From assembly GCA_033220425.1 (NCBI GenBank), contig CM065650.1, positions 4,588,001 through 4,652,000 on the forward strand: a DNA stretch of 64,000 nucleotides, in the 5' to 3' direction. Of the stretch, positions 26,001-59,842 are shown piece by piece (the first letter of the stretch is position 1; each line of letters opens with the position of its first letter). A program made the position numbers and the translations under genes. The stretch is from Lepraria neglecta (lineage: Eukaryota; Ascomycota; Lecanoromycetes; Lecanorales; Stereocaulaceae). The notes under the pieces are model-generated. The model saw nothing but the letters and a program-made list of their open reading frames with translations, was not told where the DNA came from and searched no databases.

Positions 26001-29000
26001 AAACCGGAGAAGATGACTATTGATATGGATAAGGATATCATGAAAATCGGCTCATGTCAGGGTATAGAGATCCCTATCTCAATCACTAAACGCCAAGGCA
26101 ACGAGATCAGTAAGAGGATCTTTACGAAAAGGAACACTATCGTGCGGTCACACTCAAGCATGCCTATATCGATCTCAGGACCGCGTCGTCGCAGGCTTAT
26201 GCTACCAGCTGACAGAGACTTCATGTTTGAGCCAACAGCCCTAGACATATCGTTGTCAGTCTATGCCTACATCATTGATTATACCGTCTCGGAAGTCTTC
26301 GTCCGTAACGATACCGACCAAGACATTGTCCTGCCCAAATACCTTAATATTGGCAACGTCTCCGAGTATGATGCTGCTGGATGCTTTGCAATCAACCCAG
26401 ATACCTATGATTTGGCCGCTAGGGGCCCCAAGAGGTCTCAGGGTTAGATTAAGACCGCAACAAGGACCTTGATGGCTACAGCAGCGGCCTTCTCGGCCAT
26501 CACAGCCCCAGAGCAGTCTGAGACAATCCATCATACTGGCGTCACCATACACGGTACCCAGGAGTCCACAATAGCCTCCATCGCGGCTATTGTTGACGAG
26601 TTCCCAAATCTCTGGAGGGATACGGGAAACGTCCGCAATGTGCCTGAATCAGAGTATATGGATATCCCTCTGATCGATAATTGGCGTAAGGTGTATAAGC
26701 CTGGCTAAGCCAAGGTATACCCCGTCGGAAGAGCTGATAAAGACGTCATCGATACAGCCTTCGACAAACTTTATAAGCAGGGTAGGATGGAATGGACTAC
26801 GACGGCGACACCCTTCTTATTCCCATGCTTCGTTGTATAGAAGGAGGGCAAGGGACGAGTAGTAGTGGACATCAGAGCCCTCAATCAAATAACCATGCCT
26901 GATGCCTATCCAGTCCTATTGCAGTCTGAGATATTGGTATTACTACGGAATGCCACCCATATTTCGACCGTCGATGCGGCGTCCTTCTTTTACCAGTGGT
27001 GGGTAAATCGCTACCACCGCTATCGACTTACCGTTGCCTCCTACAGAGGCCAAGAGACCTTTTTGGTGCCTGTTATGGGCTACCGTAACTCACCCGCCTA
27101 TGTGCAAAGGATGATTGATAGGATCCTACGATCCTTCAGATAGTTTTGTCGGGCCTACGTCGACGATATCGTGATCTTCTCTACATCCCTCGAAGAACAC
27201 CAAAGTTATCTACGTCAGGTCTTTGCAGCCCTAGATAAGATGAATATCCATTTGTCGCCACGTAAATCATTTCTGGCATACCCATCAGTCCGCCTACTAG
27301 GCTAAAGAGTTAACGCGTTGGGCCTTGCTACAGCCGATGAGAAGCTGGCAGCTATCTCGGCTCTACGTTTCCCTAAGACATTGTCACAGCTCGAGAGATA
27401 TCTGGGTATGACAGGCTACTTGCGCCAGTATATCCCACATTATGCTGCCGTCGTCAAACCCCTACAGGAGCGCAAAACCTATCTGTCGAAGAGCATCAAG
27501 GGTGTTGGGGGCAACGCTAGGAAAAAAGCGGCTGGCAGAGCCCTGCTCACGGTCCCTACACCAGGGGAGCTCAACGCCTTCCATCAACTCCAGAAGCTAT
27601 TTGCGTCACCTACTCTACTGTATCATTTCGATGAGAAGCGGCAGCTATTTATCGACCTTGATGCTAGTAAGGAGTTCGGATTCGGCGCGCATATCTATTA
27701 CTGTATGGCAGACAGTCTACAAAAGCCTTCACAGGCGCTAGATATACTACCTACCAAAGGCTTCAAGAAGCCTAATGCACTATCGAAGCCTTCCGCAACC
27801 TACGATGAGCTGAATCCCTCCACGATCAACGTCGTCGATGACCCACCTAAGCAGAAGTCCCAACAGCCTATCTTGTTCCTGAGTCGTCTGCTCACAGATG
27901 CGGAGACACGATACTGGCCAACAGAAATGGAGATAGCTGGCATCGTATGGGTAGTTAAAAAAGTAAGGCATATGGTGGAGGCAGCCCAAAAGGCTACGAT
28001 TATTTATACAGACCACTCCGCAGCTGTATCTATTGTACGCCAAACAAGCCTGACTACTATATCTGTTGAGAAACTTAACCTACGACTGATCCGAGCGTCT
28101 GAATACCTCCAACGATTTCGACTCGACGTACGCTACAAACCCGGAAAAGCTAATATCATCCCAGACGCGTTGTCTCGGCTCGCGAGCCGCGAATACGTCC
28201 CGACTGATACTGTCGAATCTAGCCTAGATGCGTTGACAGTCAAGGTCTTTCCAGTCAGCCTAGTGGAGATGAGCGACGACTTCCGTCAACGCCTCATCAA
28301 GGGCCTTATTGAGCCCCGATGGGCCCGAATAATGACTATGGTTGAGGACAATGAGGCTTTAGGCAGCAACGCGGCCAAGTTGCCATATTGCGTTGTCAAT
28401 AAACTACTCTATTTCGACGACGATGAGAAGGGTCTGAGACTATGCATCCCGTCAGTCCTGGAGCAAGAGATCTTTCAACTTGCGCATGATGAGATGGGCC
28501 ATCCTGGGTATGCCAGAACTCATGAACGCTTGACACAGGGCGTCTATATCTACAATATGGCAACAAAGCTACACGAATTCATCCGTCACTGCCCTCACTG
28601 TCAACTCAACCAAATACCTCGGCACAGACCTTATGGCTCATTACAGCCGATCCTGACGCCTGCTCGGCCATTTCATACCCTCACAATTGACTTTATCTTA
28701 GCCCTGCCAGAGTCAGTCCCAGACCACTACGAGAGTATTATGTCGGTGACCGATAAGTTCTCGAAGGCAGTAACTTTTATCCCAGGAATGAATACATGGT
28801 CTGGCAAGGACTGGGCCATAAGACTAATAGACCGCCTGGCCCAACTGAATTGGGGTGTGCCTAGATCCATTGTATCTGACCGAGACAGGAAATTCATCGG
28901 CCAAATCTGGAAGCAAGTCTTCACGGCATTGAAGGTCAGCCTATTGTATTCAACAGCATATCATCCCCAATCCGATGGGATGTCTGAGAGGTCCAATCAA

Positions 29001-30003
29001 ACTGCTGAGATAGCGTTACGCTACTATATTGCAACCTTGAAGGATCCTCGTCAGTGGCCAACAGTCCTCAGTAGGATGTCGGCCGCGTTGAATAATTCTA
29101 CGAATTACTCGTCGACCAACAAGACGCCTACGCAAGTCATGTTTGGCTTCAGGACTCGGGAGGCGTTAGATCTACTACGCCTCAACGACCCTGATGAGCC
29201 TACAGAGGACTTCGGACTACTTCATACTGATCTGAAAGCTGACAGCGTTAAAGCCTCTCGCAAAACCATTCCAGTATACCCTGTTACCCCATATTCTGAT
29301 GCCGTCGGCATGGATGAGTATCGTCCATCCCACATTGACGCCAAAGACGCTATCGCCTTCGCGGCTATGCGCATGAAGGACTACTACGATGCGCAGCACA
29401 AGCCGATGTACTTCGACGTTGGAGACATGGTACATATCCGTCTCCATAAGGGGTATAAGATGCCTGGCGTCCAGTCGAAGAAGACAGGACCACAACTCGT
29501 TGGGCCCTTTAAGGTCACAAAGCGTGTCGGCCGCCTCGCCTACCAACTCGCTCTCCCAGACGCAATACGCATACACAATGTACTGTCGATAGCTCACCTT
29601 GAGCCCGCTACACACCCATCCGATGACCCCTATCGACGCCGTCGCCCCGCAATACCTATTGTGGTCGAAAACCAAGATGAGCCGGAGTTTGAGATCGAGA
29701 GACTAATCAACAAGAGGAGGATACGTCGCGGCCGAGGGTGGTCTACATAATACCTTGTCAGATGGAAAGACAGTGGGCCTGAAGAGGATATGTGGCTACT
29801 CGATCGTGAGCTATTGCGAAATGCTGCAGAGCTCGTCAAGGACTACGAAGAGATGTATGGGACGCAATCGGCGCTGTTGGGGTAGGGATCAAGGACCTTG
29901 TTACGTCAGTGGCTGACAGACGCCTGCGTTGAGGCAGCACTACTACTGCATTGAGGCTATCGGGCGCAATCGGGTCGATTGCATTTTTTCGTTTTCTGGC
30001 ATT

Positions 30004-35402: not shown

Positions 35403-38400
35403 ATGCCTAGAAAAGCAGTGTATGTCTCCATGCTGCCATTGCAAATTTGACGCATGCTAAATTATTGCAGTGACTCGCGGATCCCCGCTTTGATTCGCAA
35501 CGCGGTCCAGGTACGTTGGACTCCCAGCGGTTCTGAAGTATAGCACATACTGATACAGCGTTACGCAGGAGAAGAAGCGCAGCTTCATCGTGGTCGTGGG
35601 GGACCGCGCCAAAGATGTTATCGTCCACTTGCACTATATCATGTCCAGCGTGGACATCAAGCAAAACAAGTCGGTATTATGGGCGTACAAGAAAGATCTT
35701 CTAGGCTTCACGAGTCATCGAAAGAAGCGAGAGAATAAGATTCGGAAAGAGATCAAGCGTGGCATTCGCGAACCCAATACCGAGGATCCGTTCGAGCTCT
35801 TCCTCACACTTCATAATATAAGATATGTCTACTATAAGGAGACGGAAAAGATTCTGGGCAACACGTTTGGAATGTGTATTTTACAGGATTTCGAGGCCAT
35901 AACCCCAAACCTGCTTGCGAGGACGATTGAGGTTGTTGAAGGTGGAGGAATGGTCCTTTTGCTGCTCAAAAGCATAAACAGCCTAAAGCAATTATACACT
36001 CTGTCCATGGACGTGCATTCCAGATATCGAACTGAGGCACACGATGATGTGGTTGCCCGCTTCAATGAACGCTTCGTGCTCTCCCTGGGCAGCTGCGATT
36101 CTTGTCTGTTTGTGGATGATGAGCTAAATGTTCTACCAATATCTGGCGGGAAGAACGTGAAACCACTGCCTCCTCCAGATCCTGAAGACGAAGGAAAAAC
36201 AAAGGCAAGGAAGGAGCTTGATGGTATCAAGCAGAGCCTGGCTGATTCACAGCCAGTGGGCTCTCTAGTCCAGATTGCCAAGACCGTGGACCAGGCAAAA
36301 GCTCTTCTTACCTTTGTTGATGCCATTGCGGAAAAGACCTTACGGAGTACAGTCACTCTTACCGCTGCAAGGGGGAGAGGAAAGTCTGCAGCTCTTGGAG
36401 TAGCGATCGCAGCTGCTATAGCCCATGGATATAGCAACATCTTCATTACTTCTCCCAGTCCAGAAAATTTGAAAACGCTGTTCGAGTTTGTCTTCAAGGG
36501 TTTCGACGCGCTCAACTATCTGGATCATATTGATTATACAATCATTCAATCAACTAATCCAGACTTCAACAAGGCAATAGTACGCGTGAATGTACACCGC
36601 CAACACAGACAAACAATACAGTATATCCAACCTCAAGATGCCTATACCCTAGGTCAAGCAGAGCTGGTTGTCATTGATGAGGCTGCAGCGATACCGCTAC
36701 CCCTTGTCAGAAAGCTGATGGGCCCGTACCTTGTTTTTATGGCCTCGACTATCAATGGCTACGAAGGCACTGGCAGATCATTATCGCTCAAATTGATACA
36801 ACAATTGCGGGAACAGTCTCGAGGAAGTGCTAAACTGAATGGTGCCGGCGATGCAGAAGTAGCTGATCGTTCAAGTGGCAAAGCTAGAACGAACGGAGAC
36901 AGCGCTTCCGGAAGAGGTCGATCGCTGCGAGAGATCACGCTTACGGAGCCTATCAGATATGCTGAAGGAGACTCAGTCGAGAAATGGCTGAACAAGGTCC
37001 TTTGCCTTGATGCTACTCTCCCCACTTCGAAGCTTAATATCCAAGGCTGTCCGCATCCTTCCAAGTGCGAGCTACTGCATGTTAATCGAGATACGCTTTT
37101 CTCATTCCATCCTGTCTCTGAAAAGTTCCTCCAACAGATGATTGCATTGTACGTTGCCAGCCATTACAAGAACTCGCCGAATGACCTGCAACTGATGAGC
37201 GATGCCCCTGCTCATCAACTTTTTGTCCTCGTTCCACCAGTCGACGATGACAGCTCTCGACTACCAGAGCCTCTCTGCGTGATTCAAGTTGCGTTAGAAG
37301 GCCAGATTAGCAAGCAGAGTGTACTCAGCAGCTTAAGCCGCGGTCAAAGAGCGGGTGGCGACATGATCCCATGGCTCGTCAGCCAGCAATTCCAGGACGA
37401 AGAGTTCGCAGGTCTCTCTGGAGCGCGAGTAGTCCGAATAGCTACGAATCCAGAGTACACTAGTATGGGCTACGGCAGCCGCGCTATCACACTCCTCACA
37501 GATTTCTATGATGGTAAATTTGCCAACCTCTCAGAGACCGAGCCTACTCAAAACGACTCTATCATCCGTGTCACAGACGTGGACCTCGAATCATCCACTC
37601 TGCAATCCGATAACATCAAAGTCCGCGACATAAATAGCATGCCTCCTCTCTTCTCTCGCCTCTCGGAGCGCCGTCCCCAGTCTTTGGACTACCTAGGCGT
37701 CTCATTTGGCCTCACACCACCTCTTCATAAATTCTGGAAGCGTGCTTCGTTCGCTCCAGTCTACCTGCGGCAAACACCCAACGAGCTCACGGGGGAGCAC
37801 TCCTGCGTAATGATACGTACGCTCTCTGGCAATAGCGGCAACACGGACAATGCCTGGCTTGGAGCCTTTGCTCGAGATTTCCACAAACGCTTCCTGTCCC
37901 TCTTATCGTACCAATTCCGTGCTTTTCCCTCAGTGCTGGCACTCTCCATCATCGAGTCTGCCAATACTGGCGCAAAACTCGATACCTTGTACACCCCAGA
38001 GCCCCTTACAAAATCCGAACTTGACGCCTCTTTCTCTCCTTTCGATCTCAAGCGCCTAGACAGCTATGCGAATAACATGCTTGACTACCATGTCATCCTG
38101 GATATGATACCGCCGATTGCACATCTTTACTTCACAGGTAGACTGAAGCCAGCAGTGAGTATGACGGGCGTGCAGTCGAGTATCTTACTGGCAATTGGCT
38201 TGCAGCGGAAGGTGCTTGAGGATGTCGAGAAGGAATTGGGCTTGCCGGCTAGCCAGTTGCTGGCTATGTTTGTGAAGATTGTGAGGAAGGTATCGGCTCA
38301 TTTCAGGAGGATCCTGGAAGGTGCTGTTGAGGAAACCATTCCTCAATCGAATATCACCGTTGAGGAGGACGGCATGGATGTGGAGCAGACGAAGAAATAC

Positions 38401-38727
38401 GACCCGCTGCAAAGTAATCTCGACGAGGAGTTAAGAGAAGGCGGAGAAGAAGTCGACAAGGAGTTGAAAGAGAAGCAAAGAGCCTTGATCGATGCCTTGC
38501 CGCTGGACAAATACGAGGTCGAGACTGGGTCAGCAGGTTGGGATGAGGCAGAAAAGCAGGTCAAGCGTGCACATGCGAAAGGTGGAGAAAAAGATCTGAC
38601 CGTAAGTGTGAAGTCTTCCAAGTCCGATAAAAAGCGAAAAGGAGAGTTGGCCGAGGATATCTACCGGGAGGAAATTGGGGACAAAGAGGCTAAGAGGCTG
38701 AAGAAGGCGATGAAGAAAGCTAGATAG
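35403..38727 (+). CDS. KRE33: RNA cytidine acetyltransferase (NAT10/Kre33), 1071 aa
   Basis: Nucleolar ATP-dependent enzyme that makes N4-acetylcytidine in 18S rRNA and, with Tan1, in tRNA-Ser/Leu; needed for small-subunit assembly. Exons: 35403-35419 (17-nt microexon, MPRKAV), 35471-35510, 35569-38727; the joined N-terminus reads MPRKAVDSRIPALIRNAVQE then KKRSFIVVVGDRAKDVIVHL, exactly the family start. RNA helicase-like domain: Walker A TAARGRGKSAALG (about residue 285), Walker B VVIDEAAAIPLPLV (about 380), motif STINGYEGTGRSLSLKL. GNAT domain around 600-740 (VVRIATNPEYTSMGYGSRAI). C-terminal tRNA-binding region and a Lys-rich tail for nucleolar targeting. Length matches yeast Kre33 (about 1056 aa). 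The three-exon start is strongly supported by family conservation. Confidence 0.95.
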
Positions 38728-38864
38728 CCTCTATCACGGATCCTCTAGGGTACTGGCTTCTACGATTAGCTAAATGCATTCATGCCACTCTATATACCCT
38801 GCCCAATGACACCAAAGTCCTTCAAACTTGAATTAATTGAAAGCCTGTCTTGATAAAACTGTCT

Positions 38865-39704
38865 TCACAGATAACTTCCCCCCGAAAACCGACTCCCAAA
38901 ATCCTTCGCCTTATTCAACAACTCCCTCTTCTGCGCATGCCCAATCTTCTGCCCCAACCCAATATCCTTCTCCCGATCAAAAGCCCTAGCACTAGGATCA
39001 TCCTCCTTCTCCTTGGGCCCCGCCTTCTTATGCTCACTGTACAAACTCCCTCCCCGATTCTTCTCATTATACTCCCTTATCCTCCTCTCCGTCTCTCGCG
39101 CCTCTTCCTCCTGTCTTGTATCCCTCTTCTCCTCAGGCCCTAATTGCGCAGGCTTCTTCAGGCCCATGACTTCGTCTTCTAGCCGCTGTCGTTTTTGCTC
39201 GGGTGTTTCGCTCCAGAGGGAGGTTTCGGAGGAACCGCCTTGGCTGGGCGCCTTTGCGCCTTTGCCACTGTTGAATTTGCGGTTGCGGAGTTTGGTGGGG
39301 TCAACTTTTGAGGTCCAGTCTCCTTGTTTTGGGGGAACAAGCATCCATTCTTCGCGCTGGGGTTTTTTGGCTGCCTCTTTGGTCGCAAAATCTTCGTCGA
39401 GAGTCTGTTGGCGTTTTCTTTCGGCTTCGTGCTTCATTGAGCCTGGGGCTGGTGGTGGAGAGGGGCCGAAGTCGTCGTCTGAGGAGCTGTCTTCTGCGTC
39501 TGGCACTGGCGCTGTGGGTGGAAGTTCTAAGAGGTCGGCTGGTGGAGGGGCTGGGCCTATGACTCGGCGGGGTTCAGTATCGTTGGAGCTGCTTAAGGAG
39601 CTGCGCCGTCGCTTTGGGGGGGTCAATGCGGTGTCGTGTGCTTCGTCTTCCCGCTTGCGCTTTGTCTGGAGATGAGGAGGGAGTTCGGGGCCGACTGTAG
39701 GCAT
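38865..39704 (-). CDS. GPALPP-motif / DUF3752 protein, 279 aa
   Basis: Begins MPTVGPELPPHL and contains the repeated short motif of the GPALPP1 family (VGPELPP; VIGPAPPPADL; FGPSPPPAP). The conserved DUF3752 C-terminal half follows: REEWMLVPP, DPTKLRNRKFNSGKGAKAPS, SLWSETPEQKRQRLEDEVMG, then SLYSEHKKAGPKEKEDDPSA and FDREKDIGLGQKI. Nuclear, highly charged, probably unstructured. The family is associated with splicing or transcription complexes but its role is not firmly known. An in-frame Met 27 codons upstream precedes a segment with no family similarity, so the MPTVGP start is preferred. Tail-to-tail with KRE33 (137-bp gap). Confidence 0.88.
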   Translation of the reverse strand: MPTVGPELPPHLQTKRKREDEAHDTALTPPKRRRSSLSSSNDTEPRRVIGPAPPPADLLELPPTAPVPDAEDSSSDDDFGPSPPPAPGSMKHEAERKRQQTLDEDFATKEAAKKPQREEWMLVPPKQGDWTSKVDPTKLRNRKFNSGKGAKAPSQGGSSETSLWSETPEQKRQRLEDEVMGLKKPAQLGPEEKRDTRQEEEARETERRIREYNEKNRGGSLYSEHKKAGPKEKEDDPSARAFDREKDIGLGQKIGHAQKRELLNKAKDFGSRFSGGSYL

Positions 39705-40880
39705 GGTGTACGTGCAGTGGAATCCAGACCGTGTATGCGAGAAGCTAGGTGATTGTTGTGGAGGTTGGATGTTAGTGGAGCGCAAGCTTCAGATGCATGG
39801 ACGTTGAAATACGAGGCTTGGCATCACAAGGCAGTATCCTAATACGCTAGGGAGTATAAATAATCTGGTATTAGCACCGAGCCACTGAGCCTCACGTTAT
39901 GCTATACTAAATGCCAAATATTCGAAAAAAGGATCACCGTTTCGATTCCTTAAATATATATTCCGTCGATAAAGGCTTCGCGAACGGAAGCAGCGCGCTA
40001 TGTGGGATTTCTATTAAATGTTTAATGAATGCTAAGGAGCCGATAATGGGTAGAAGTCTGTATGGGAAAGCCACCGGGAACGGCGACAAGAAAAATATGC
40101 CTTTACTGGGATCTACAAGGAAATGGATTCCGTGTGCCGTTGAGGGAAAGTCTGCGTCGAAGCGTCGCGTTAAATGTTTCCGCCATTCGTTACCTAATCG
40201 AGATGAAGCTGTTGGCGGTCAAGGTGGGGGTGGAATGCATATGTGTACTTCGGAAAGCCAATAGCCCGTCTGACATCCACGGATAACACATTCGCGGTCT
40301 GGGATCAGGGTATCGACACCTAGGCCGTCGACACCTCACCTGAGTTGAAGGTTGTCAAGCCCGAAATCCGTAATGCAACCATCCCCCGCAACCCTGCCAG
40401 CGGTACTGCCCCCAGCCCACATGTTGAACAAACTCAGGGACAAGGTGATCTAGCCCAAGTCAAGGAGCCGGAGTTAGAAATCATAAAAGATACTTGATAC
40501 AAGAGAGACGGTGTCGGGAACGGAATACATGGCACGGTGGAAAAATACACGGCTGCTCAAAGGTGAACTGGGAAACGCACGGAGGTTGCTGCGGGAGTTT
40601 GAGACAAAAGGCCGAGCACAGCACAGATGAGAACGGGGCAGACCGGCTCACCCAGACAGAGGTTGGTGATCATTGGCCATTTTTTCGCAGAAGGATCACA
40701 CATAGTTCACTCTATCAAAGAATGGCAAGGGAAACACCAGCGATGGTACGGTATCCCTCCGTCCCAAGCCCTCTCCCAGCCTTGAGTGGTCGGCACGTGG
40801 CTAGTGTACAGTTGCATGAAATAGTCTGCCATATAATGTGTCCTAAAACGCTATCACCTACCTCAAAATATCGGATATTG
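39705..40880. other. about 1.2 kb of decayed sequence, nothing recognised
   Basis: Several open frames of 70-160 codons occur on the plus strand (39911-40264; 40494-40982), but no frame shows a family pattern. Some stretches read like charged protein (LKGELGNARRLLREFETKG near 40570), and the region may contain the eroded N-terminus of the AAA-ATPase pseudogene downstream. I cannot support a gene here. Confidence 0.35.
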
Positions 40881-43238: not shown

Positions 43239-46200
43239 ATGCCACCTCCGCAAACCGAGATAGCCCAAGGAGGTTCCCAATTTGGCAACATCGACGCCTC
43301 TCAGAGCCAGCTTTTTCTAGGGAACTTCGTCGGACTCACTATCAGTCAGCACGCCTTATAATCCGGTGATACTTCTAATTAATAAACCTCTTCCCTCCAG
43401 ATTCGAAAGCTGCGGCTCGAGATGACTATGTGGGTCAGTATTCCAAGTCGTCGCTGCGACCGGTTCCAAACTACGTCTCGCGGCCGAAGCTCCATCAGAA
43501 GATCAAGGAACGATTACATGACTCGACAGGCGACGGAGCGCAAGTTGGACAGATACTGGTGGTTTGGGGGCTCGGTGGAGCCGGCAAATCGCAGCTGGTG
43601 CTCAACTATGTCCGGGAGTGTCGTCAAGACTACACCGCCGTCTTTTGGATCGAAGCCGGATCGAACGAGTCGATCGAGCGGGACTATGTACAGATCTACC
43701 GGCTACTGTACGATCGCCAGATCGCGGCGGGCCAAGAGATGTTGAAGGCGGAAGATGCGGTGCCGGCAGTCAAAAGCTGGTTCCAGGGCCGGAAGGGGCG
43801 ATGGCTGGTCGTCCTGGACAGTGCGGACACCATCGACGACAATCAAGACCGGTCGTACGTCGATCTGGACCACTTTATGCCGGACGCACCGGGTGTGGAT
43901 ATCATCATCACGTCGCGGAGCGCAACGGCGAGGGACATCACAGCGCTAGAAGCCGTCGAGGTGGGGGATATGGAGCCAGCAGAAGCGGCCGAGCTGTTCC
44001 AACGATACGCAAAGTTCAAGGGGAAGGGGCGGGACGTCGAGGCAGAAGTAGTTCGAATCGTGAACGAGCTTGGGCATTTTGCGTTGGCAATCACGCTGGC
44101 CGGTTCATATGTGTCCGCAACGCCTCGGTTGTCGTCTGATATCCGGAGATATCTCCCCGAGTATCGTCAGCGGCGGACAGAGCTGCTTCGTCAGCGACCC
44201 AAGCAGCATATCCACCGGTACGGCGAGAGCGTATTGAGCACGTGGGAAGCATCCTTCGACGCAGTTGTGAATCAAAGTCCGGCGGCAGCCCGACTGTTGA
44301 ACATACTGGCATTTATGAACTTCGACGATATCTTTCTCCGTCTGTTTGATCAGAGCGCAGACTCGGTCAGTCCACAGCCAGAGACTGCACCGTCAACTGT
44401 TCGGACGTGGTGGTCGTTCCTCTTCCCCAAAGTCGACTGGAACTTGTATGAGTTGGAGTTGGCATTTAAGACACTGCAAATGTATTCCCTAATCCAGTGG
44501 AGATCGGATCAAGAGAGCTACGCAATGCACAAGCTTGTGCACGCGTGGGGACAGGATCGACTGGATATGGAAACGCAGTGGCGATCAAGTGGTGTGGCTC
44601 TGGAGGTTTTGGCGGATGCTACCCAGGATAATCGGCTCAATCCAAGCTATAAGCTACGATTGGTGCCGCATTTGATGGCAAACTTTAGCACGTTTTTCGA
44701 AAAACATCACTCGAAGCGTGAAGTCGTAAGGGACAGACTTGCTCTGGTGGACAGAATCGAGCGGTTCCTATACGCGATAGGGCGATGGTCCGAGGCGTAC
44801 GAGATGCGGGTGTTCCATTTTAGGAATACAGAGAAGACGCTAGGCAAGAAGCATCCCTCTACGCTGACGAGCATGAACAATCTGGCATTGGTGTTGACAC
44901 GTCAAGGCAAACACGAAGAGGCCGAGCAGATACATCGACAGACACTGGCGTTAAAGGAAACGGTGCTGGGCAAAGAGCATCCCGATACGCTGACGAGCAT
45001 GAACAATCTGGCATTGGTGCTGAGCAGTCAAGGCAAACACGAAGAAGCCGAGCAGACACATCGACAGACACTGGCGTTGACGGAAACGGTGCTGGGCAAA
45101 GAGCATCCCTCTACGCTAACGAGCATGAACAACCTGGCATCGGTGCTGAGCAGTCAAGGCAAACACGAAGAAGCCGAGCGGATACATCGACAGGTATTGG
45201 CATTATGCGAAAAGGTGCTGGGCAAAGAGCATCCCGATACGCTAACGAGCATAAACAATCTGGCATTGGTGCTGAGCAGTCAAGGCAAATACGAAGAGGC
45301 CGAGCAGATACATCGACAGACACTGGCGTTGATGGAAACGGTGCTGGGCAAAGAGCATCCCGATACGCTGACGAGCATGAACAATCTGGCATCGGTGCTG
45401 AGCAGTCAAGGCAAACACGAAGAGGCCGAGCAGACATATCGACAGACACTGGCGTTGACGGAAACGGTGCTGGGCAAAGAGCATCCCGATACGCTGACGA
45501 GCATGAACAATCTGGCCGAGGTGCTGAGCAGTCAAGGCAAACACGAAGAGGCCGAGCAGATACATCGACAGACACTGGCGTTGACGGAAACGGTGCTGGG
45601 CAAAGAGCATCCCGATACGCTGACGAGCATGAACAATCTGGCCGAGGTGCTGAGCAGTCAAGGCAAACACGAAGAGGCCGAGCAGACATATCGACAGACA
45701 CTGGCGTTGACGGAAACGGTGCTGGGCAAAGAGCATCCCGATACGCTGACGAGCATGAACAATCTGGCCGAGGTGCTGAGCAGTCAAGGCAAACACGAAG
45801 AGGCCGAGCAGATACATCGACAGACACTGGCGTTGACGGAAACGGTGCTGGGCAAAGAGCATCCCGATACGCTGACGAGCATGAACAATCTGGCATCGGT
45901 GCTGAGCAGTCAAGGCAAACACGAAAAGGCCGAGCAGATACATCGACAGACACTGGCGTTGAAGGAAACGGTGCTGGGCAAAGAGCATCCCGATACGCTG
46001 ACGAGCATGAACAATCTAGCATCGGTGTTAAGACGTCAAGGCAAATACGAAGAGGCCGAGCAGACACATCGACAGACACTGGCGTTGAGGGAAACGGTGC
46101 TGGGCAAAGAGCATCCCGATACGCTGACGAGCATGAACAATCTGGCCGAGGTACTGAGCAGTCAAGGCAAACACGAAGAGGCCGAGCAGATACATCGACA

Positions 46201-47095
46201 GACACTGGCGTTGATGGAAACGGTGCTGGGCAAAGAGCATCCCTCTACGCTAACGAGCATGAACAATCTGGCATCGGTGCTGAGCAGTCAAGGCAAACAC
46301 GAAGAGGCCGAGCAGATACATCGACAGACACTGGCGTTGAAGGAAACGGTACTAGGCAAAGAGCATCCCTCTACGCTAACGAGCATGAACAATCTGGCCG
46401 AGGTACTGAGCAGTCAAGGCAAATACGAAGAGGCCGAGCAGACACATCGACAGACACTGGCGTTGACGGAAACGGTGCTGGGCAAAGAGCATCCCGATAC
46501 GCTGACGAGCATGAACAATCTGGCATCGGTGCTGAGCAGTCAAGGCAAACACGAAGAGGCCGAGCAGACATATCGACAGACACTGGCGTTGACGGAAACG
46601 GTGCTGGGCAAAGAGCATCCCGATACGCTGACGAGCATGAACAATCTGGCCGAGGTGCTGAGCAGTCAAGGCAAACACGAAGAGGCCGAGCAGATACATC
46701 GACAGACACTGGCGTTGACGGAAACGGTGCTGGGCAAAGAGCATCCCGATACGCTGACGAGCATGAACAATCTGGCCGAGGTGCTGAGCAGTCAAGGCAA
46801 ACACGAAAAGGCCGAGCAGATACATCGACAGACACTGGCGTTGAAGGAAACGGTGCTGGGCAAAGAGCATCCCGATACGCTGACGAGCATGAACAATCTG
46901 GCCGAGGTGCTGAGCAGTCAAGGCAAACACGAAAAGGCCGAGCAGACATATCGACAGACACTGGCGTTGATAGAAACGGTGCTGGGCAAAGAGCATCCCG
47001 AGACGCTGACGAGTATAAACAATCTGGCATCGGTGCTGAGCAGTCAAGGCAAAGACAAAGAGGCCGAGCGGATACGTCGACAAACCTTGGCATAA
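43239..47095 (+). CDS. NLR-type receptor: short N-terminal motif, NB-ARC, 18 TPRs; 1266 aa
   Basis: STAND NTPase of the fungal NLR group, a presumed cytosolic sensor. Exon 1 (43239-43344) encodes 35 residues containing QFGNIDASQSQLFLGNFVG. A 56-bp intron (43345-43400) leads to exon 2 (43401-47095); the total is 1267 codons. NB-ARC: Walker A VVWGLGGAGKSQLV (residues about 89-102), Walker B WLVVLDSAD (about 169-177), sensor strand VDIIITSRS, and GHFALAITLAGSYV in place of the GLPL motif. A winged-helix region ends with MHKLVHAW. The TPR domain has 18 units of 42 residues, almost identical. The frame is uninterrupted, unlike every NLR piece downstream. The first ATG in phase with the splice was chosen; a second ATG-less exon-2-only start would lose the N-terminal motif. 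No large N-terminal effector domain is present, so signalling may go through the short motif (inference). Confidence 0.9.
44846..47092 (+). repeat. tandem array, 18 x 126 bp (42-residue TPR unit)
   Basis: Unit at protein level starts KEHPDTLTSMNNLA and ends ALTETVLG. Units 2-17 keep the same length and most of their bases; the last stops after 35 residues. Variation is confined to a few columns: S/D/E after HP, L/S/E after NNLA, SS/RR/TR before QGK, H/Y after QGK, E/K in HEEAE, I/T then H/Y before RQ, and K/T/M/R/I before ETVLG. The 126-bp unit is a multiple of three, so several frames stay open on both strands through the array. Confidence 0.95.
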
Positions 47096-47329
47096 AAACA
47101 AATGCGACTTTTCAGATCAGCCGACTCATACTGGTCAGCTTGGTATATTTGGTTGGCTGACAGGGAAATTGCGGATCTGTGTGATTTATATTTCACCTAG
47201 GTTGTGTTTCTGTTGCGGATTTCTCAACGTGGATGACTTTTCGTAAGCCGTGTGGTTGAGATAGTGGGGTATTCTGATGGACCGCCTTGCTGTAGGACAC
47301 GATGACTTCCCAGTATAGTCCTGTCTCAT

Positions 47330-48430
47330 CGGTCTACCGGTCTCTGAGAAATTCGTCAATCGAGATACAGAGATGGAGCAGATGGAGCGTTTCCTGCTAC
47401 CCTCAAATCTACAGGACGGGCGGAAGATACACGTACCACATGGCCTCGGTGGCATAGGTAAAACGTAATTAGCCATCGCGTATGCCAGGAAACAACAAGA
47501 GATACATAGTGCAAAAAAATAGCTCAACGGCAAGGGCAAGGATACCCTTTTACAGAGCCTTGCAGGGTTTACGAAGTATGCGAGTATCGATGGTGTACGG
47601 GAACCAATCATCAAGGTCACCGGGGTTGGTCAAGAAGTACCAGAGAAGGCAAACGCGTTTCTACGATGGTTGGCCCTTGAAGGAAACCCTCCATGGCTTG
47701 TTATCCTTAACAACCTCGATCGAGACTACCGTGGGGAAAGAGAAGACTCTCAAGCTTACGATATGGAATCCTTCCTCCCAGCTACCGACCACGGATCTCT
47801 ACTTGTCACTACACGCCTTCCTCATCTCGGAGGATTCGGGAACGGGACAAAAGTTTGAGAGGTCGATCCCGAGCACGCTCTTCATATTCTCATGTACAAA
47901 TCACTCCTGCCTCATCTACCCCAGGTATTACCGCGTTCCGATATTTGTCCTCAAGACGTTAGAATTGGCTGACTGATGGCTAGAAATCGACAGGCTTGTG
48001 ACGAGGTGAGGAGGTCTTCCATTAGCCATCATGCAGCCCGGTCGATCCATGCGTGAGAGGGGGACCAGTTCTCAGAAGTACCTACGTCTATATAATACCT
48101 CGAGGTCAAAACTTCAAGCAGATACACCTTGACTGCGTGAATGTTAGACTGGGAGCGTTCAGAACACTTGGCGCATCTCTTACGAATGTGTTGAGCAATT
48201 CGATTTAACAGCAGCAAAGCTTCTTCAGCTATGCACGTACCTGGACAACCAAGACCTCTGGTTTGAGTTACTGAAATGTGGCAGCCAAGGTTACAAAGAC
48301 CCGGCCTGGTTCCACGATCTCCTGCTAAGTGAGATAGGCTTTCAAAGGACTATCAGGATGTTGCCCGCTTATTCACTGGTCAATTCATACCAGCGGCTTC
48401 ACAAACGATCTTCTTTCAGTCCTCTGCTGA
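47330..48430 (+). pseudogene. NLR remnant: NB-ARC and winged-helix region
   Basis: In one main frame: FVNRDTEMEQMERFLLPSNL, then HVPHGLGGIGKT (P-loop, followed directly by a TAA), KVTGVGQEVPEKANAFLRWL, PPWLVILNNLDRDYRGERED, then FLPATDHGSLLVTTRLPHLG (Walker B and sensor region). After a frame change, TYLDNQDLWFELLKCGSQGY, then KDPAWFHDLLLSEIGFQRTI and RMLPAYSLV, the winged-helix part that precedes repeats in fungal NB-ARC proteins. Several stops and frame changes make it dead. It starts about 230 bp after the intact NLR but is a different, divergent NLR: the LNNLD Walker B and GLGGIGKT P-loop differ. Confidence 0.75.
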
Positions 48431-48619
48431 GATCCGCGTGTCCGGTCGAATCTTTGGACCCTCGTTACTGACGAGTTCCTGGGACAATATGAGAGAGCAA
48501 TGAGTCACACACACTTTTTACTCTGTACAAAGCATAAAGGTACCCCACTTACCACCAGCCATTACTTCAACGATAATCTACGAAAAGCTCGAGTCGAGAA
48601 GCTGAAAATTGTCCTGAAG

Positions 48620-50628: not shown

Positions 50629-51279
50629 ACTTATGTTTATTATCAAGCTGAGCAGATACCTATCCTCAACTTCAGGGCTAAATGTCTACTATAGGCACTA
50701 AGCATGAGAATGAGCTCTAGCGAGCTCTAGCCGTAGCACTATATCTAATCACAGTTGTAGATACTTCGAGACAAGCGCCACCAGGCTCGATGTATGCAAG
50801 ACGACATGCAATTAGGAGCTGAAATATTCCAGCTCCTCTCGATATGCCGCTAAGGAGGCATCCGTTCTGCATAGGAAAGGTCTAGCCTTCCTCATGGAGG
50901 CACACCGCCTTTTGGTTGGATCGAAAACATTTCCCTCCTCTTTTTTTCAGCTGCTTAAAGCCACCGGCGATTTAGACTATAACTTTCAAGTGATATGAAA
51001 GTGCGATAACCTGGCCACAGCTTTTGTCCAGCAAACTCACTGCCGTTAGATCCTGGCCTAGAAGCTGAGCTGAATCAGAGTCTTTACTGCGAGTGTTGAT
51101 CAAGAGCACAATAGTATCGATACGTCAAATTTCAGATCTTCTCAACTTTGGCACATACTCCAGGGAAGCTGTCCTCGTGATCACTACCGAAAGCAAGAGA
51201 CGCAATAGCAATAGGAAAATTGATACTCTATTCCGCGTTGCAGTGTTTACAGCTTGGCTCCAACATCACCGCTATCAAT
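50629..51279. promoter_or_regulatory. divergent promoter region between small protein (-) and peptidase (+)
   Basis: 651 bp between two divergent start codons. It should hold both promoters. A pyrimidine-rich run (near 50930-50950) is visible but no specific site can be named. Confidence 0.4.
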
Positions 51280-53357
51280 ATGTCTAATGCTGAACCGCCA
51301 GCTGACGCCAAACCTATCGAGGTCAATGGGCAGGTAGTTGATCCTAGCGAGCATCACGCCCGAGATGCGCAAAACACAGACCACATCATTGTGACTGTAA
51401 GAGATGTACTTGACAATGACCAAAGAGCCGAGTTGCAAAAGCTTCAGGTGGAGTTCTTGGAGGACCTTGGCAACCACAACATTCTCTGTCGCTACAAACG
51501 CTCAGACCTCAAGCCACTCCGAGATCTGAGCTTCGTCGAGCAAGTTGATGTGTATCGAAACCTGTACAAGATTCCGGCAGTGCTGTTAGCATTCATTGAA
51601 GAGCTTAAGGGAACACCAGAGTTCGAAACCAAGATTTACCCGATCGATGTGATGGTGCATCAAGAGGTCAAAGACCTGGAAGCACTGGTTGACCACATTT
51701 CCAATGTGGCACAAGTTGACCGGAGTCAGATGGAAATTACTCCAGATAAAATTCGTCTGGAAGTAAATCTTGGAGAGCTGAAGGCAATTGCAGCCGATGA
51801 CCACGTCCGCATACTCGAGGAAGTAGTGACTCCAGTCTTGTTCGACGATCAAGCAAAGCGGCTCGTGTTTGCGCCCTTACCGATTCAAGGGGATTCTGAG
51901 TTCTGTGGCAAGGAACAGACCATCGCAGTCGTTGATTCTGGCTTTGATATTGGCAGCGTAGAAGATTGCCATCCAGCTTTCACAGGTCAGATGCACAAGC
52001 TGATCCCTGTCGGTCGCGCTCTAGACAAGGACAAGACAGAAAGACAAAGAGTTGATGATCCAAATGGCCACGGAACGCATGTCTGTGGGACCATCGTTGG
52101 TAAGGAGATCGAGACCTCACAAGGGATGGTCGGAGGTGTGGCTCAAGATGCGAAAGTGGTCCTTTCGTCTTTAGCAAAGGCTGATGGTGATCTTATCGCG
52201 GTCACACAGATCAAGACGTTGTACGAGGTGCCATACAAAACCTATGACGCTCACGTGCATTCAAAATCGTGGGGCGACGATCTCGGCATGGGAAAGAAAT
52301 AGGATATATATGGCAAAGGTGACTGCGATATCGACGACTTTGTGCGGGCCAACCCCAATGCTCTGATCTGCTTTTCTGCCGGGAATAAAAATCTGTACAT
52401 GAATGAGAAGGAGCCTTCTGGCACACAAAAGCCTTCTATCGGGTCTCAGGCTGCAGCTAAGAATTGTTTGACAGTTGGTGCTTCTGGATCAACAAGGGTA
52501 GGTAGTACTCGTTCCTAAGACTGGTAAGATCGACAAGCTTGATCCAGATCAGATCTGCCCAGATAGCAGCAGAGGGCCAACAGCAGAGAAGCGTATTAAG
52601 CCTGATGTGGTTGCGCCAGGCTTCAACATCGTTTCCGCTCATTCAAGACATCCGAGAGCTGTGACGTTCTCGGCAGCAGAGGCCACCGGCGAGTCATACA
52701 CTGAGGTTGTGTGGAAGGTTCGAAGCGGGACCAGCCATGCAACACCACTGGTGTCGGGCTGTGCCGCAATCTTACGTCAAATCCTGCAAAGCAAAGGATT
52801 CCAAAGCCCCCCAGCTGCGCTTTCTCAAAGCTGTTATCATCAACGGTGCCCACAAGCTTCCTGGCGTTGACATCGCAGCTCAGGGCTTTGGCTGAATAAA
52901 CCTGCAGTCTTCTGTGGCCATGTTGCAGTCGCTTCCAGTCATGTCCAAAGAGATCTTCGACTCTTCGCTATCTCCGTTGGGAGGCAGCTTGATCGGAGCG
53001 CCTCTCAAACAAGGCGACAAGTTAGAATTTACGCTAGCATCGGCTCAAAGGTCTGATGAGTTTGAATTGAAGATCACAATGGTCTACAACGATCTACCTG
53101 CTGGCGCAATCCAGAATAACCTAAACCTCGCTGTCAGTAACAGTGTGACTGGCGTTACCAAACATGGTGGCATCTCTGAGGAAGAGATTGACAAGCAGAA
53201 TAATGTTGAGCAAGTCATCTGGTATCCTGCACCAAAAGTGCCAATCACTATTTGTGTCACGGCTCAGAAGATCTTCTTCTATGGCGACGAACAGGATTTT
53301 GCGCTCGCATGGTCAGCATCTGCACCATTTAGAGGCGTCAACAAGGATTTCGTGTAG
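51280..53357 (+). pseudogene. subtilisin-family (S8) serine peptidase, broken
   Basis: Subtilase fold with all four active-site blocks visible in order: IAVVDSGFDIGS (Asp), DPNGHGTHVCGTIVG (His), ALICFSAGN (oxyanion Asn), SGTSHATPLVSGCAAIL (Ser). A 200-residue N-terminal region precedes them without a signal peptide, so the product was probably intracellular. A beta-rich C-terminal domain (KLEFTLASAQRSDEFELKIT; VYNDLP) follows, as in Kp43-like subtilases. The coding sequence is broken in about four places, so I call it a pseudogene. It is head-to-head with the small Gly-rich gene at 50039-50628. Subtilase genes beside small effector genes are known from fungal cell-death loci (het-Q1/het-Q2 type); belonging to that type is inference. 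Confidence 0.72.
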
Positions 53358-58591: not shown

Positions 58592-59842
58592 ATGGGGCCC
58601 GCAGAGCTGTTGGCGCAGGCAGAGGAACTCCTCAGGACTGGCAGGGCGGATGAGGCTTTACCCATTGCCACAAAAGCTTTGGCAGGATTACAACCGGATG
58701 GAAGTCGTGTTGCGAGGGGCTCATTACCGGCGCTCAACCTTCTAGGAGAGATAAATCTCGAAATCGGAGACGCAGATACAGCCAGGCAGTACTTCCTAAC
58801 CGCCGTGAATCTCGACTCAGATGGTTCAATACCCGAATCACAAGGTGGTGGGGCGGAAAAGTTCCTATGGCTTGCGCAATTGAGCGAGGAAGGTGGCCAC
58901 GATAGTGTCAATTGGTTTCGACGGGGAGCCACCGTTTTAAGAAATGATATTGCTGCTATGGGAGATGTGGAGGCGGGGAAGGAAAAGAGGAAAAAGCTTT
59001 CTGAAACTTTGTGTGGAATCATTGAGGTATGTATCCCTAATTTGTATCACAACCGGAGTGTTTACACCGGTGGTTTGGGAGCAAATGTTGGGGTCTTTGC
59101 CTTCTGTTTGCTCTTGAGACCTGGCTCATAACCTATCGGCGGACCTGAAAATGAGTTTCTGACCCGGAAATGTTTGCAGGTCTACATGACAGATCTCTCC
59201 TGGGAAAGCGACGCCGAATCAAATTGCGAATCCCTAATCGCCGAAGCCCTACTGGTTGCACCGCATTCACCCGAACCATTACAAACGCTGGCATCGATAC
59301 GCATATCCCAAACCCGAATGCCAGAGGCAAAAAAGGCCCTGGCAGATAGCATAGCGCTGTGGAAAGATCTACCTCCTGAAGATACCGGAGTGCCCGACTT
59401 CCCTACCCGCATCAGCTTAGCGCGTCTACTGATGGAAGTGGAAATGGGAGAAGAAGCGCTAGAAGTTGTTGAGAGGCTGGTCACTGAAGATGATCAAAGC
59501 GTCGAAGCGTGGTATCTTGGGGGCTGGTGCCTTTACCTGCTCGGAGAGAAGCGGAAAGATACCCAAGACATAGGCGCAGATGCGGTTATGCATGATGAAA
59601 AGCAGAGGGAAGATAGCCTTCACATCGCATCGTTGGTTTCTAGCAGGGAGTGGTTAAGGCAGAGTTTGCAGCTTTATGAGGTCCTGGACTATGAGGATGA
59701 AAGGTTGCGAGACCATGCGAAGGAGCTTGTTGATGGGCTAGATACCGAGCTGATTGAAGAGAATGGGGTGCTAAATGGGGAGGGAGACAGCCAAGAAGAT
59801 GACGAGGATGGGGAAGAAACCGATGGGATGGATGAATCATGA
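58592..59842 (+). CDS. ACL4: TPR protein, Acl4-like ribosomal-protein chaperone, 365 aa
   Basis: Exons 58592-59026 and 59180-59842 (153-bp intron, phase 0, GTATGT donor) sum to 366 codons. TPR helices run throughout: LLAQAEELLRTGRADEALPI, ALNLLGEINLEIGDADTARQ, LQTLASIRISQTRMPEAKKA, ISLARLLMEVEMGEEALEVV and AWYLGGWCLYLLGEKRK. The second exon opens VYMTDLSWESDAESNCESLI, and the C-terminus is strongly acidic (EEDDEDGEE-type). This superhelical TPR with an acidic tail matches fungal Acl4, the dedicated chaperone that captures nascent Rpl4 and escorts it to pre-60S particles. The assignment is from architecture and the conserved MTDLSWExDAExxCExLIxEA segment. Confidence 0.78.

What the first reader, a model, noticed from the sequence alone, without database searches (positions are those of the whole stretch)
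44846..47092. NLR sensor array of 18 near-identical TPR units
The 18 units of 126 bp differ only at a handful of columns (after HP, after NNLA, before and after QGK, in EAEQ[I/T][H/Y], before ETVLG) while the backbone is invariant. High internal conservation with hypervariable columns is known for fungal NLRs that evolve by repeat reshuffling and diversifying selection (HET-E/HET-D WD40, and TPR/ANK homologues). Here the variation pattern is visible inside one allele. Alternation such as units 5-8 (T-Y / I-H) hints at block duplication of two-unit segments.
Basis: partly seen in the sequence, partly recalled or inferred. Interest (0 to 1): 0.75.

Follow-up and report, generated by a model that had tools for sequence, protein, structure and literature searches.

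The report
Fungal immune receptor with repeat sensor
This is a gene for a fungal intracellular immune receptor (an NLR) whose sensor is built from 18 nearly identical repeats in which a few positions vary, many of them facing the predicted binding groove, while the rest is held constant; it is a further example of a receptor type that is already published.

Summary
A fungal gene (exons 43239-43344 and 43401-47095, splice predicted) carries 17 full 42-residue TPR units plus an 18th cut by the stop; 14 of 42 amino-acid columns vary. It is an NB-ARC/TPR NLR with eight close paralogues in its genome. At seven columns chosen from the paralogues alone, replacement differences in this array exceed synonymous ones 2.4-fold; at the other columns they are four-fold rarer. 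The unit matches kinesin light chain TPR: the two asparagine columns that hold the peptide backbone there are invariant here, and peptide-contact columns include five of the seven most variable columns in the paralogues, but three of seven in this gene. Exact 249- and 340-bp duplications show block copying inside the array; no identical unit is shared between genes. Architecture and mode of evolution are published (Dyrka 2014): a new member of a known kind. In addition, exon 1 encodes a short G/N/Q-rich motif shared by most paralogues and by two loci where it lies between a SesB-like hydrolase exon and an NB exon; it fits no published amyloid-motif pattern that I tested. Strain polymorphism could not be tested.

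The parts
43239..43344 (+). Predicted exon 1: ATG plus G/N/Q-rich motif (AQGGSQFGNIDASQSQLFLGNFVGLTI), candidate amyloid-signalling motif
   Evidence: A paralogue's motif peptide finds it and nine other places in the genome; donor at the same place in seven of nine family loci; no RNA data
43345..43400 (+). Predicted intron, 56 nt, phase 1, CTAAT branch-like site, CAG acceptor
   Evidence: The joined frame has no internal stop and gives 1266 aa
43401..47095 (+). Predicted exon 2: NB-ARC, DUF7779 region, TPR array, stop
   Evidence: (NB-ARC 32.8 bits, DUF7779 29.3 bits with cut-off 27)
43568..43591 (+). P-loop GLGGAGKS of the NB-ARC domain
   Evidence: Sequence
44852..47095 (+). TPR sensor array: 17 full units of 42 aa and an 18th of 33 aa with the stop
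   Evidence: five-unit model pLDDT 90.5 with Foldseek matches to KLC1 TPR and 4y6c
45334..45673 (+). 340-bp block exactly repeated at 46468-46807 (lag nine units)
45394..45642 (+).
47424..48273 (+). Remnant of a second, decayed NLR directly downstream (two tblastn pieces, 27 and 31% identity); not part of this gene
   Evidence: stop codon just after a P-loop-like stretch

Best explanation
The gene encodes a headless fungal NLR: a short N-terminal signalling motif, an NB-ARC switch and a 42-residue-TPR superhelix as sensor. SHOWN from sequence: array, domains, column pattern, paralogues, exact duplications. PREDICTED: splice, fold of a five-unit segment. INFERRED: the superhelix binds an extended peptide or protein segment in its concave groove as kinesin light chain does. 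Asparagines at columns 9 and 10 would hold the ligand backbone, and variable columns (3, 6, 13, 16, 17, 31, 35 across the family) would set specificity, most of them in the groove. Specificity changes by copying blocks of units inside the gene and by selection on these columns. Ligand binding would release the NB-ARC to oligomerise, bringing the N-terminal motifs together; these would template the related motif in a separate partner carrying a SesB-like hydrolase and so trigger a cell-death or incompatibility response.
For: NB-ARC and TPR matches. Unit copying: exact 249- and 340-bp duplications. Homogenisation: within-array nt identity 0.934 against 0.799-0.824 to the other eight arrays, while NB regions are 0.704-0.739 identical. 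Selection: pN at paralogue-chosen columns 0.224, pS over all columns 0.094, pN elsewhere 0.023; 0 of 2000 random 7-column sets reach the observed value. Groove: KLC1 residues named as peptide contacts in passages of PMC6214655 fall on columns 6, 9, 10, 13, 14, 16, 17, 21, 35; five of the seven most variable paralogue columns are among them (hypergeometric p 0.0026, or 0.0005 without the two asparagine columns), and columns 9 and 10 do not vary in the 17 full window units. Fold: TM-score 0.87 to KLC1 TPR 5oj8 and to 4y6c. Related motif exon at two loci where it follows a SesB-like hydrolase exon.
Against: In the window array only three of its own top seven variable columns are KLC contacts (p 0.16 or 0.077), though contact columns are on average more variable (p 0.021 or 0.0027); columns 9 and 10 vary a little in the paralogues (mean entropy 0.34 and 0.16). 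Columns 3 and 31 vary but are not KLC contacts. Over all columns pN/pS is 0.61, and at five variable columns it is 5.23 here but 0.76-3.91 in the seven paralogues, two of them below 1. Helical-face clustering of variability is not significant for this gene (p 0.21 and 0.17) and in paralogues only for helix A (p 0.023; helix B 0.33). Units are not independent, so the bootstrap overstates certainty. Only one of five models of the segment was confident. No ligand, expression or strain data. The motif fits no published pattern tested and no Pfam model. The hydrolase has no significant match in this window (best E 0.15).
Confidence: 0.6

Rival explanations
1. The column pattern is a by-product of mutation bias (RIP-like C-to-T at CpA) plus purifying selection on the TPR fold, without diversifying selection.
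For: Synonymous C-to-T variants in the arrays prefer CpA (50 of 87 sites against 7 of 78 CpT and 17 of 51 CpG, eight arrays pooled); the H/Y and T/I columns differ by one transition. A family copy at C2:2019079-2019894 is heavily RIP-like (CA/TA 0.03, GC 0.365).
Against: The same CpA bias is present in the NB region of one clade (34 of 61 against 14 of 105 CpT) and weakly in the other (17 of 58 against 13 of 96), so it is not particular to the arrays; among replacement changes CpA is not preferred (20 of 62, CpT 24 of 62). The most variable columns (35, 13, 3) include multi-base codon changes and transversions. CA/TA of the array is 4.15.
Confidence: 0.15
2. The array is a recent tandem expansion of one founder unit and the differences are neutral drift tolerated at surface positions.
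For: All 17 full units form one clade; pS inside the array is 0.094, the lowest of the eight arrays analysed; in two of seven paralogues pN/pS at the variable columns is below 1.
Against: Replacement differences exceed synonymous ones at columns chosen from other genes, which drift alone is not expected to give.
Confidence: 0.17
3. The gene is a non-immune scaffold or kinesin-light-chain-like transport protein.
For: Best solved relatives by sequence are kinesin light chains.
Against: NB-ARC domain with P-loop upstream; 4y6c, also titled putative kinesin light chain, comes from Podospora anserina, which has published NLRs of this class; a multi-copy family with decayed and RIP-like members.
Confidence: 0.05
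4. Repeat number is an assembly artefact.
For: Such arrays are misassembled from short reads in Podospora (abstract of PMC12222747).
Against: The genome is 42.0 Mb in 11 contigs, which suggests long reads; most units carry distinguishing differences. Not directly tested.
Confidence: 0.05

Closest known systems
NB-ARC/TPR NLRs with highly conserved repeats, e.g. P. [quoted passage not shown] Dyrka et al. 2014, PMC4986451 (passages and section 17 seen)
   Same: Domain order, TPR units with over 85% internal conservation, variable positions on the concave face of a KLC2-based model; a P. chrysogenum protein with 21 such units is described there
   Different: 18 units here; strain polymorphism not tested; the column-by-column comparison with KLC1-peptide contacts is added here (I saw no such comparison in the passages read)
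P. anserina nearly identical 42-residue TPR-like repeats, PDB 4y6c/4y6w
   Same: Same unit length and fold, TM-score 0.87 and 0.85
   Different: 30% identity over about 206 columns; that the structure has five repeats and no ligand is recalled, not from a call
Kinesin light chain 1/2 TPR domain (6fuz, 6fv0, 3zfw)
   Same: Unit length, asparagine pair, groove; TM-score 0.81-0.86 normalised by the model
   Different: Six diverged repeats (passage), cargo adaptor function; no NB-ARC (recalled)
HET-D/HET-E (HNWD) family, Paoletti et al. 2007 PMC1805685 (passages seen)
   Same: Near-identical repeats, few selected positions, RIP-hit family members
   Different: NACHT and WD40; repeats exchanged between genes there, no identical units shared here
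NLR/effector pairs using amyloid motifs: HRAM, PP, sigma, PUASM (PMC3321046, PMC4518210, PMC5485727 passages; PMC9815663 sections 19, 24, 46 and passages)
   Same: Short G/N/Q-rich N-terminal motif on a headless NLR, related motif beside a SesB-like hydrolase elsewhere in the genome
   Different: Motif matches none of the PP, sigma or PUASM patterns (regex) nor HRAM (by eye); amyloid formation untested

Membership tests
Fungal NLR (STAND) of NB-ARC/TPR type | NB-ARC domain with P-loop | tested here: met
   PF00931 32.8 bits, cut-off 23.5; NACHT 23.8, below its cut-off of 26.7; GLGGAGKS
Fungal NLR (STAND) of NB-ARC/TPR type | C-terminal superstructure-forming TPR repeats | tested here: met
   PF13424, PF13374; fold of a five-unit segment
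Fungal NLR (STAND) of NB-ARC/TPR type | N-terminal effector domain or signalling motif | tested here: inconclusive
   No Pfam match for the joined N-terminus; a conserved short motif exon upstream
NLRs with high internal repeat conservation (Dyrka 2014) | At least 85% identity between repeats over at least 100 aa | tested here: met
   Twelve five-unit windows of the array are 88-96% identical to the first, mean column identity 94%; nt identity between units 0.934
NLRs with high internal repeat conservation (Dyrka 2014) | Repeat-number polymorphism between strains | not testable with these tools
   One genome only. Proxy: paralogues L012 and L014 with 96.5% identical NB regions have 21 and 11 detected units, L009 and L010 (93.5%) 11 and 17
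NLRs with high internal repeat conservation (Dyrka 2014) | Positive selection at a few concave-face codons | tested here: inconclusive
   pN exceeds pS at paralogue-chosen columns here, less clearly in paralogues; no codon model over strains; concave mapping by analogy to KLC1
HNWD (HET-D/HET-E) family | NACHT plus WD40 repeats | tested here: not met
   NB-ARC plus TPR
HNWD-type concerted evolution between genes | Repeat units exchanged between family members | tested here: not met
   No identical nt unit shared between any two of nine genes; 17 of 17 full window units nearest to their own array. In the L012-L016 clade many units are nearest to another gene (22 of 58 'other', 6 ties), so exchange or shared ancestry there is open; L011 is a recombinant in its NB region
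Sigma, PP, PUASM amyloid motifs | Published consensus patterns | tested here: not met
   Regex on nine motif instances including the window's, none matched; GGSQFGN of exon 1 resembles one sigma submotif by eye. Pattern text; the logos themselves were not seen
HRAM | Hydrophobic positions 5, 8, 10, 16, 18 and G at 19 | tested here: not met
   By eye: the window motif does not fit in register, whereas the N-terminal peptide of paralogues L009 and L010 fits the positions given in PMC4518210

The most novel reading that the evidence does not exclude
The family works as a sensor-to-helper network built on a shared exon. Five headless TPR NLR loci (window gene, L011, L012, L014, L016; L011 with a broken frame in its array) start with a phase-1 motif exon. 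Two other loci (L015 and C4:3150 kb) carry a related exon between a SesB-like hydrolase exon and their own NB exon, where by eye its inclusion keeps the frame, while a third hydrolase-NLR locus (C7:1474 kb) shows no such motif. Many rapidly diversifying sensors could thus recruit a few hydrolase-bearing NLRs by a possibly new amyloid motif, as plant sensor NLRs use helper NLRs. Intron retention after the motif would instead release a free hydrolase-motif effector.
Probability: 0.18. Interest if true: 0.7.

Novelty: new member of a known kind. Interest (0 to 1): 0.38.

Why it matters
It gives a complete, long array in one genome with eight close paralogues, so columns can be chosen in one gene set and tested in another. 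The overlap between fungal variable columns and kinesin-light-chain peptide contacts makes a concrete prediction: these NLRs read extended peptides with an asparagine clamp. What activates fungal NLRs is largely unidentified (passage of PMC10197012), and this narrows what to look for. The shared motif exon would, if real, connect several sensors to a few effectors.

Tried and rejected
Array-specific RIP as the source of variation: rejected as specific, because NB controls show the same context bias (strongly in one clade, weakly in the other) and replacement changes do not prefer CpA. Alternative-frame and antisense ORFs of 191-651 aa across the gene: considered mostly stop-free echoes of a repeated 126-bp unit; not tested further. 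An effector gene in the window: the hydrolase has no significant match (best E 0.15), and Pfam on ten of the 23 ORFs of at least 190 aa listed for 22-64 kb gave no hydrolase, HeLo or PNP domain; short exons and the first 22 kb were not scanned with Pfam. PNP_UDP in the genome: six matches, not followed. Relatives in prokaryote genome contigs: 18 pattern matches, none confirmed. Structure of the whole array without an alignment: poor, pLDDT 57.8. The five-unit model has pLDDT 90.5 but the other four of its five models reached only 41-54. The pdb_via library was not available. Unit counts use a threshold of 22 of 42 identities; a stricter motif gave 12 units for L009, 15 for L010, 20 for L012, 12 for L016, 8 for L011 and 3 for L013. 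Units containing a stop (unit 18 here and one each in L011, L012, L015) were dropped before identity, pN/pS, entropy and tree counts; L013 (two units) was dropped from pN/pS and entropy. Paper searches: for TPR NLR variability since 2018, five papers, all five listed and none on this array type beyond those cited; for KLC-like NLR sensors 28 papers, eight listed; for SesB, amyloid motif and helper 207 papers, eight listed. In these listings I saw no title that claims the KLC contact match or a fungal helper network by amyloid motif; passages of two papers mention plant sensor-helper pairs and head-to-head NLR pairs in Sordariales. This is not proof of absence from print.
Full report
What is there. 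The window lies in a 42.0-Mb, 11-contig genome at C5:4588001-4652000. Tandem Repeats Finder gives a 126-bp unit in 17.8 copies at 44839-47082 with 93% matches. The plus-strand frame from 43430 to 47095 is open for 1221 aa. There are 17 full units of 42 residues and an 18th of 33 residues ended by the stop, with constant spacing. Pfam finds TPR_12 and TPR_10 over the array and, before it, NB-ARC at 32.8 bits and DUF7779 at 29.3 bits, both above their cut-offs; NACHT stays below its cut-off.

Gene model. An ATG at 43239 opens a short exon that ends in a phase-1 donor; a 56-nt intron with a CAG acceptor at 43400 joins it in frame, giving 1266 residues without an internal stop. Donor and acceptor recur at the same place in seven of nine family loci (window, L011-L016; GTTAG in L013 and L016), with weaker candidates in L009 and L010. 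This is a prediction without RNA data.

Family. A protein search of the same genome with the NB region gives 77 matches; eight besides the window are 66-68% identical over nearly the whole query and have no stop, and several more are shorter or carry stops. TPR arrays of the same 42-residue kind follow in all eight, with 2 to 21 detected units; the reading frames of L011 and L013 end within their arrays. NB identities form two clades, L009-L011 and L012-L016, with the window gene apart at 0.70-0.74. L011 is a recombinant: its first 450 or so aligned bases resemble the second clade (0.92-0.96 to L013) and the rest the first (0.87-0.96 to L009 and L010).

Column pattern. In the window array columns 35, 13, 27, 3 and 28 have the highest amino-acid entropy; averaged over seven paralogue arrays the order is 35, 13, 3, 17, 31, 6, 16. 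The per-column entropies correlate (Spearman 0.62, p 1.5e-5). Using only the paralogue-chosen columns, pN in the window array is 0.224, pS over all columns 0.094, ratio 2.39 (500 bootstraps over units: 2.02-3.13), and pN at the other 35 columns 0.023; none of 2000 random 7-column sets reached it. These are uncorrected Nei-Gojobori proportions and the units are not independent. Over all 42 columns pN/pS is 0.61 here and 0.33-1.01 in the seven others; at a fixed set of five variable columns it is 5.23 here and 0.76-3.91 in the others, two of them below 1. So the excess is clear in this array and mixed in its relatives.

How the array changes. Exact blocks of 340 bp (lag nine units) and 249 bp (lags two and seven units) are repeated. 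The synonymous third base of column 12 is fully linked to the codon of column 13 (GCC with GAG in 8 of 8, GCA with TCG or TTG in 10 of 10), as expected if short tracts move together. All 17 full units form one clade in a tree of 111 units from nine genes, each nearest to its own array; no identical nucleotide unit is shared between genes. In the L012-L016 clade the picture is mixed: 22 of 58 units are nearest to another gene. In similar pairs the arrays differ in number while the NB region changed little: L012 and L014, NB 0.965, 21 and 11 units; L009 and L010, NB 0.935, 11 and 17 units.

Mutation context. Synonymous C-to-T variants, polarised by the majority base, prefer CpA in the eight arrays (50 of 87 against 7 of 78 at CpT; in the window array alone 7 of 13 against 3 of 11), but the NB region of L012-L016 shows the same (34 of 61 against 14 of 105) and that of L009-L011 a weaker bias (17 of 58 against 13 of 96); replacement changes do not prefer CpA (20 of 62, CpT 24 of 62). 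One family copy, C2:2019079-2019894, is heavily RIP-like (CA/TA 0.03, GC 0.365), while the window array is not (CA/TA 4.15). RIP appears to have acted on this family, but it does not by itself explain the variable columns.

Structure and ligand groove. A five-unit segment aligned with 12 other five-unit segments of the same array gives one confident model (pLDDT 90.5, pTM 0.80; the other four models 41-54). Helices span columns 2-17 and 21-39. Foldseek's best matches are kinesin light chain TPR structures and the P. anserina repeats 4y6c/4y6w. Passages of PMC6214655 name KLC1 residues that touch bound peptides; by their letters they fall on columns 9 and 10 (asparagine pairs on the peptide backbone), 6, 13, 14, 16, 17, 21 and 35 (14 of 14 letters checked agreed). 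Columns 9 and 10 do not vary in the window array; in the paralogues they vary a little (mean entropy 0.34 and 0.16). Five of the seven most variable paralogue columns are contact columns (p 0.0026 with all nine contacts, 0.0005 without the two asparagine columns). For the window array alone the overlap is three of seven (p 0.16, 0.077), although contact columns are more variable on average (p 0.021, 0.0027). Helical-face clustering is significant only for helix A of the paralogues. The groove reading is therefore well supported for the family and moderately for this gene.

N-terminal motif. A peptide of the L012 motif exon finds 11 matches at ten places, the weakest at E 0.0024: six family loci (window, L011, L012, L013, L014, L016), a partial one by another NLR on C3, a solo copy on C4, and two places with a hydrolase exon upstream (L015, C4:3150 kb). 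The hydrolase (DUF676, 33.5 bits) has two close relatives elsewhere in the genome at 86 and 83%. At L015 and C4:3150 kb the motif exon lies between hydrolase and NB exons with, by eye, compatible phase; read without splicing it ends at a stop a few codons on. At C7:1474 kb the hydrolase is followed by an NB exon and no motif is seen. The motif matches none of the PP, sigma or PUASM patterns and no Pfam model. The peptide in L009 and L010 instead fits, by eye, the HRAM positions given in PMC4518210. Headless NLRs paired with hydrolase effectors are a published theme (PMC3321046; PMC5485727). Motifs lying between an effector domain and the NB domain are reported too, in a basidiomycete and in a few ascomycete HeLo-like NLRs (PMC9815663).

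Verdict. Dyrka et al. 2014 already describe this architecture, high repeat identity, number polymorphism and concave-face selection in P. anserina, and a 21-unit P. chrysogenum example. The gene is a new member of that kind; the contact-column comparison and the shared motif exon are the additions.

Noticed in passing
window 47380-48500 (+): Remains of another NLR directly downstream, with a P-loop-like stretch followed by a stop codon; tblastn pieces at 47424-47891 and 47983-48273.
   Followed up: partly
window 51220-52302 (+) and 59174-59842 (+): Subtilase (Peptidase_S8) ORF and a weak TPR_19 match on the same strand; possibly parts of one further NLR with a protease head, since S8 peptidases are listed among fungal NLR effectors (passage of PMC10197012).
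   Followed up: no
G000 C2:2019079-2019894 (L042): A copy of part of the NB region with an extreme RIP-like signature (14 TAG, 9 TAA, no TGA; CA/TA 0.03), so RIP has probably acted strongly in this lineage.
   Followed up: partly
L011 (C6:2605200-2614700): Recombinant NLR: motif exon and first part of NB from one clade, rest and array from the other.
   Followed up: partly
L030 / C4:2336943-2337047 (-): Solo motif exon with a donor-like site and no NB match nearer than paralogue L013, about 9 kb away on the other strand.
   Followed up: partly
window 45111-46205 (-), 45205-47160 (+), 46371-47101 (-): Long alternative-frame and antisense ORFs through the array, read here as an echo of the repeated unit.
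   Followed up: partly
window 27318-29750 (+): Retrotransposon-like ORF (RT RNase H, integrase zinc-binding, Tf2-1-like SH3).
   Followed up: no
window 35590-39785: Neighbours upstream: NAT10-type RNA cytidine acetyltransferase and a DUF3752 protein.
   Followed up: no
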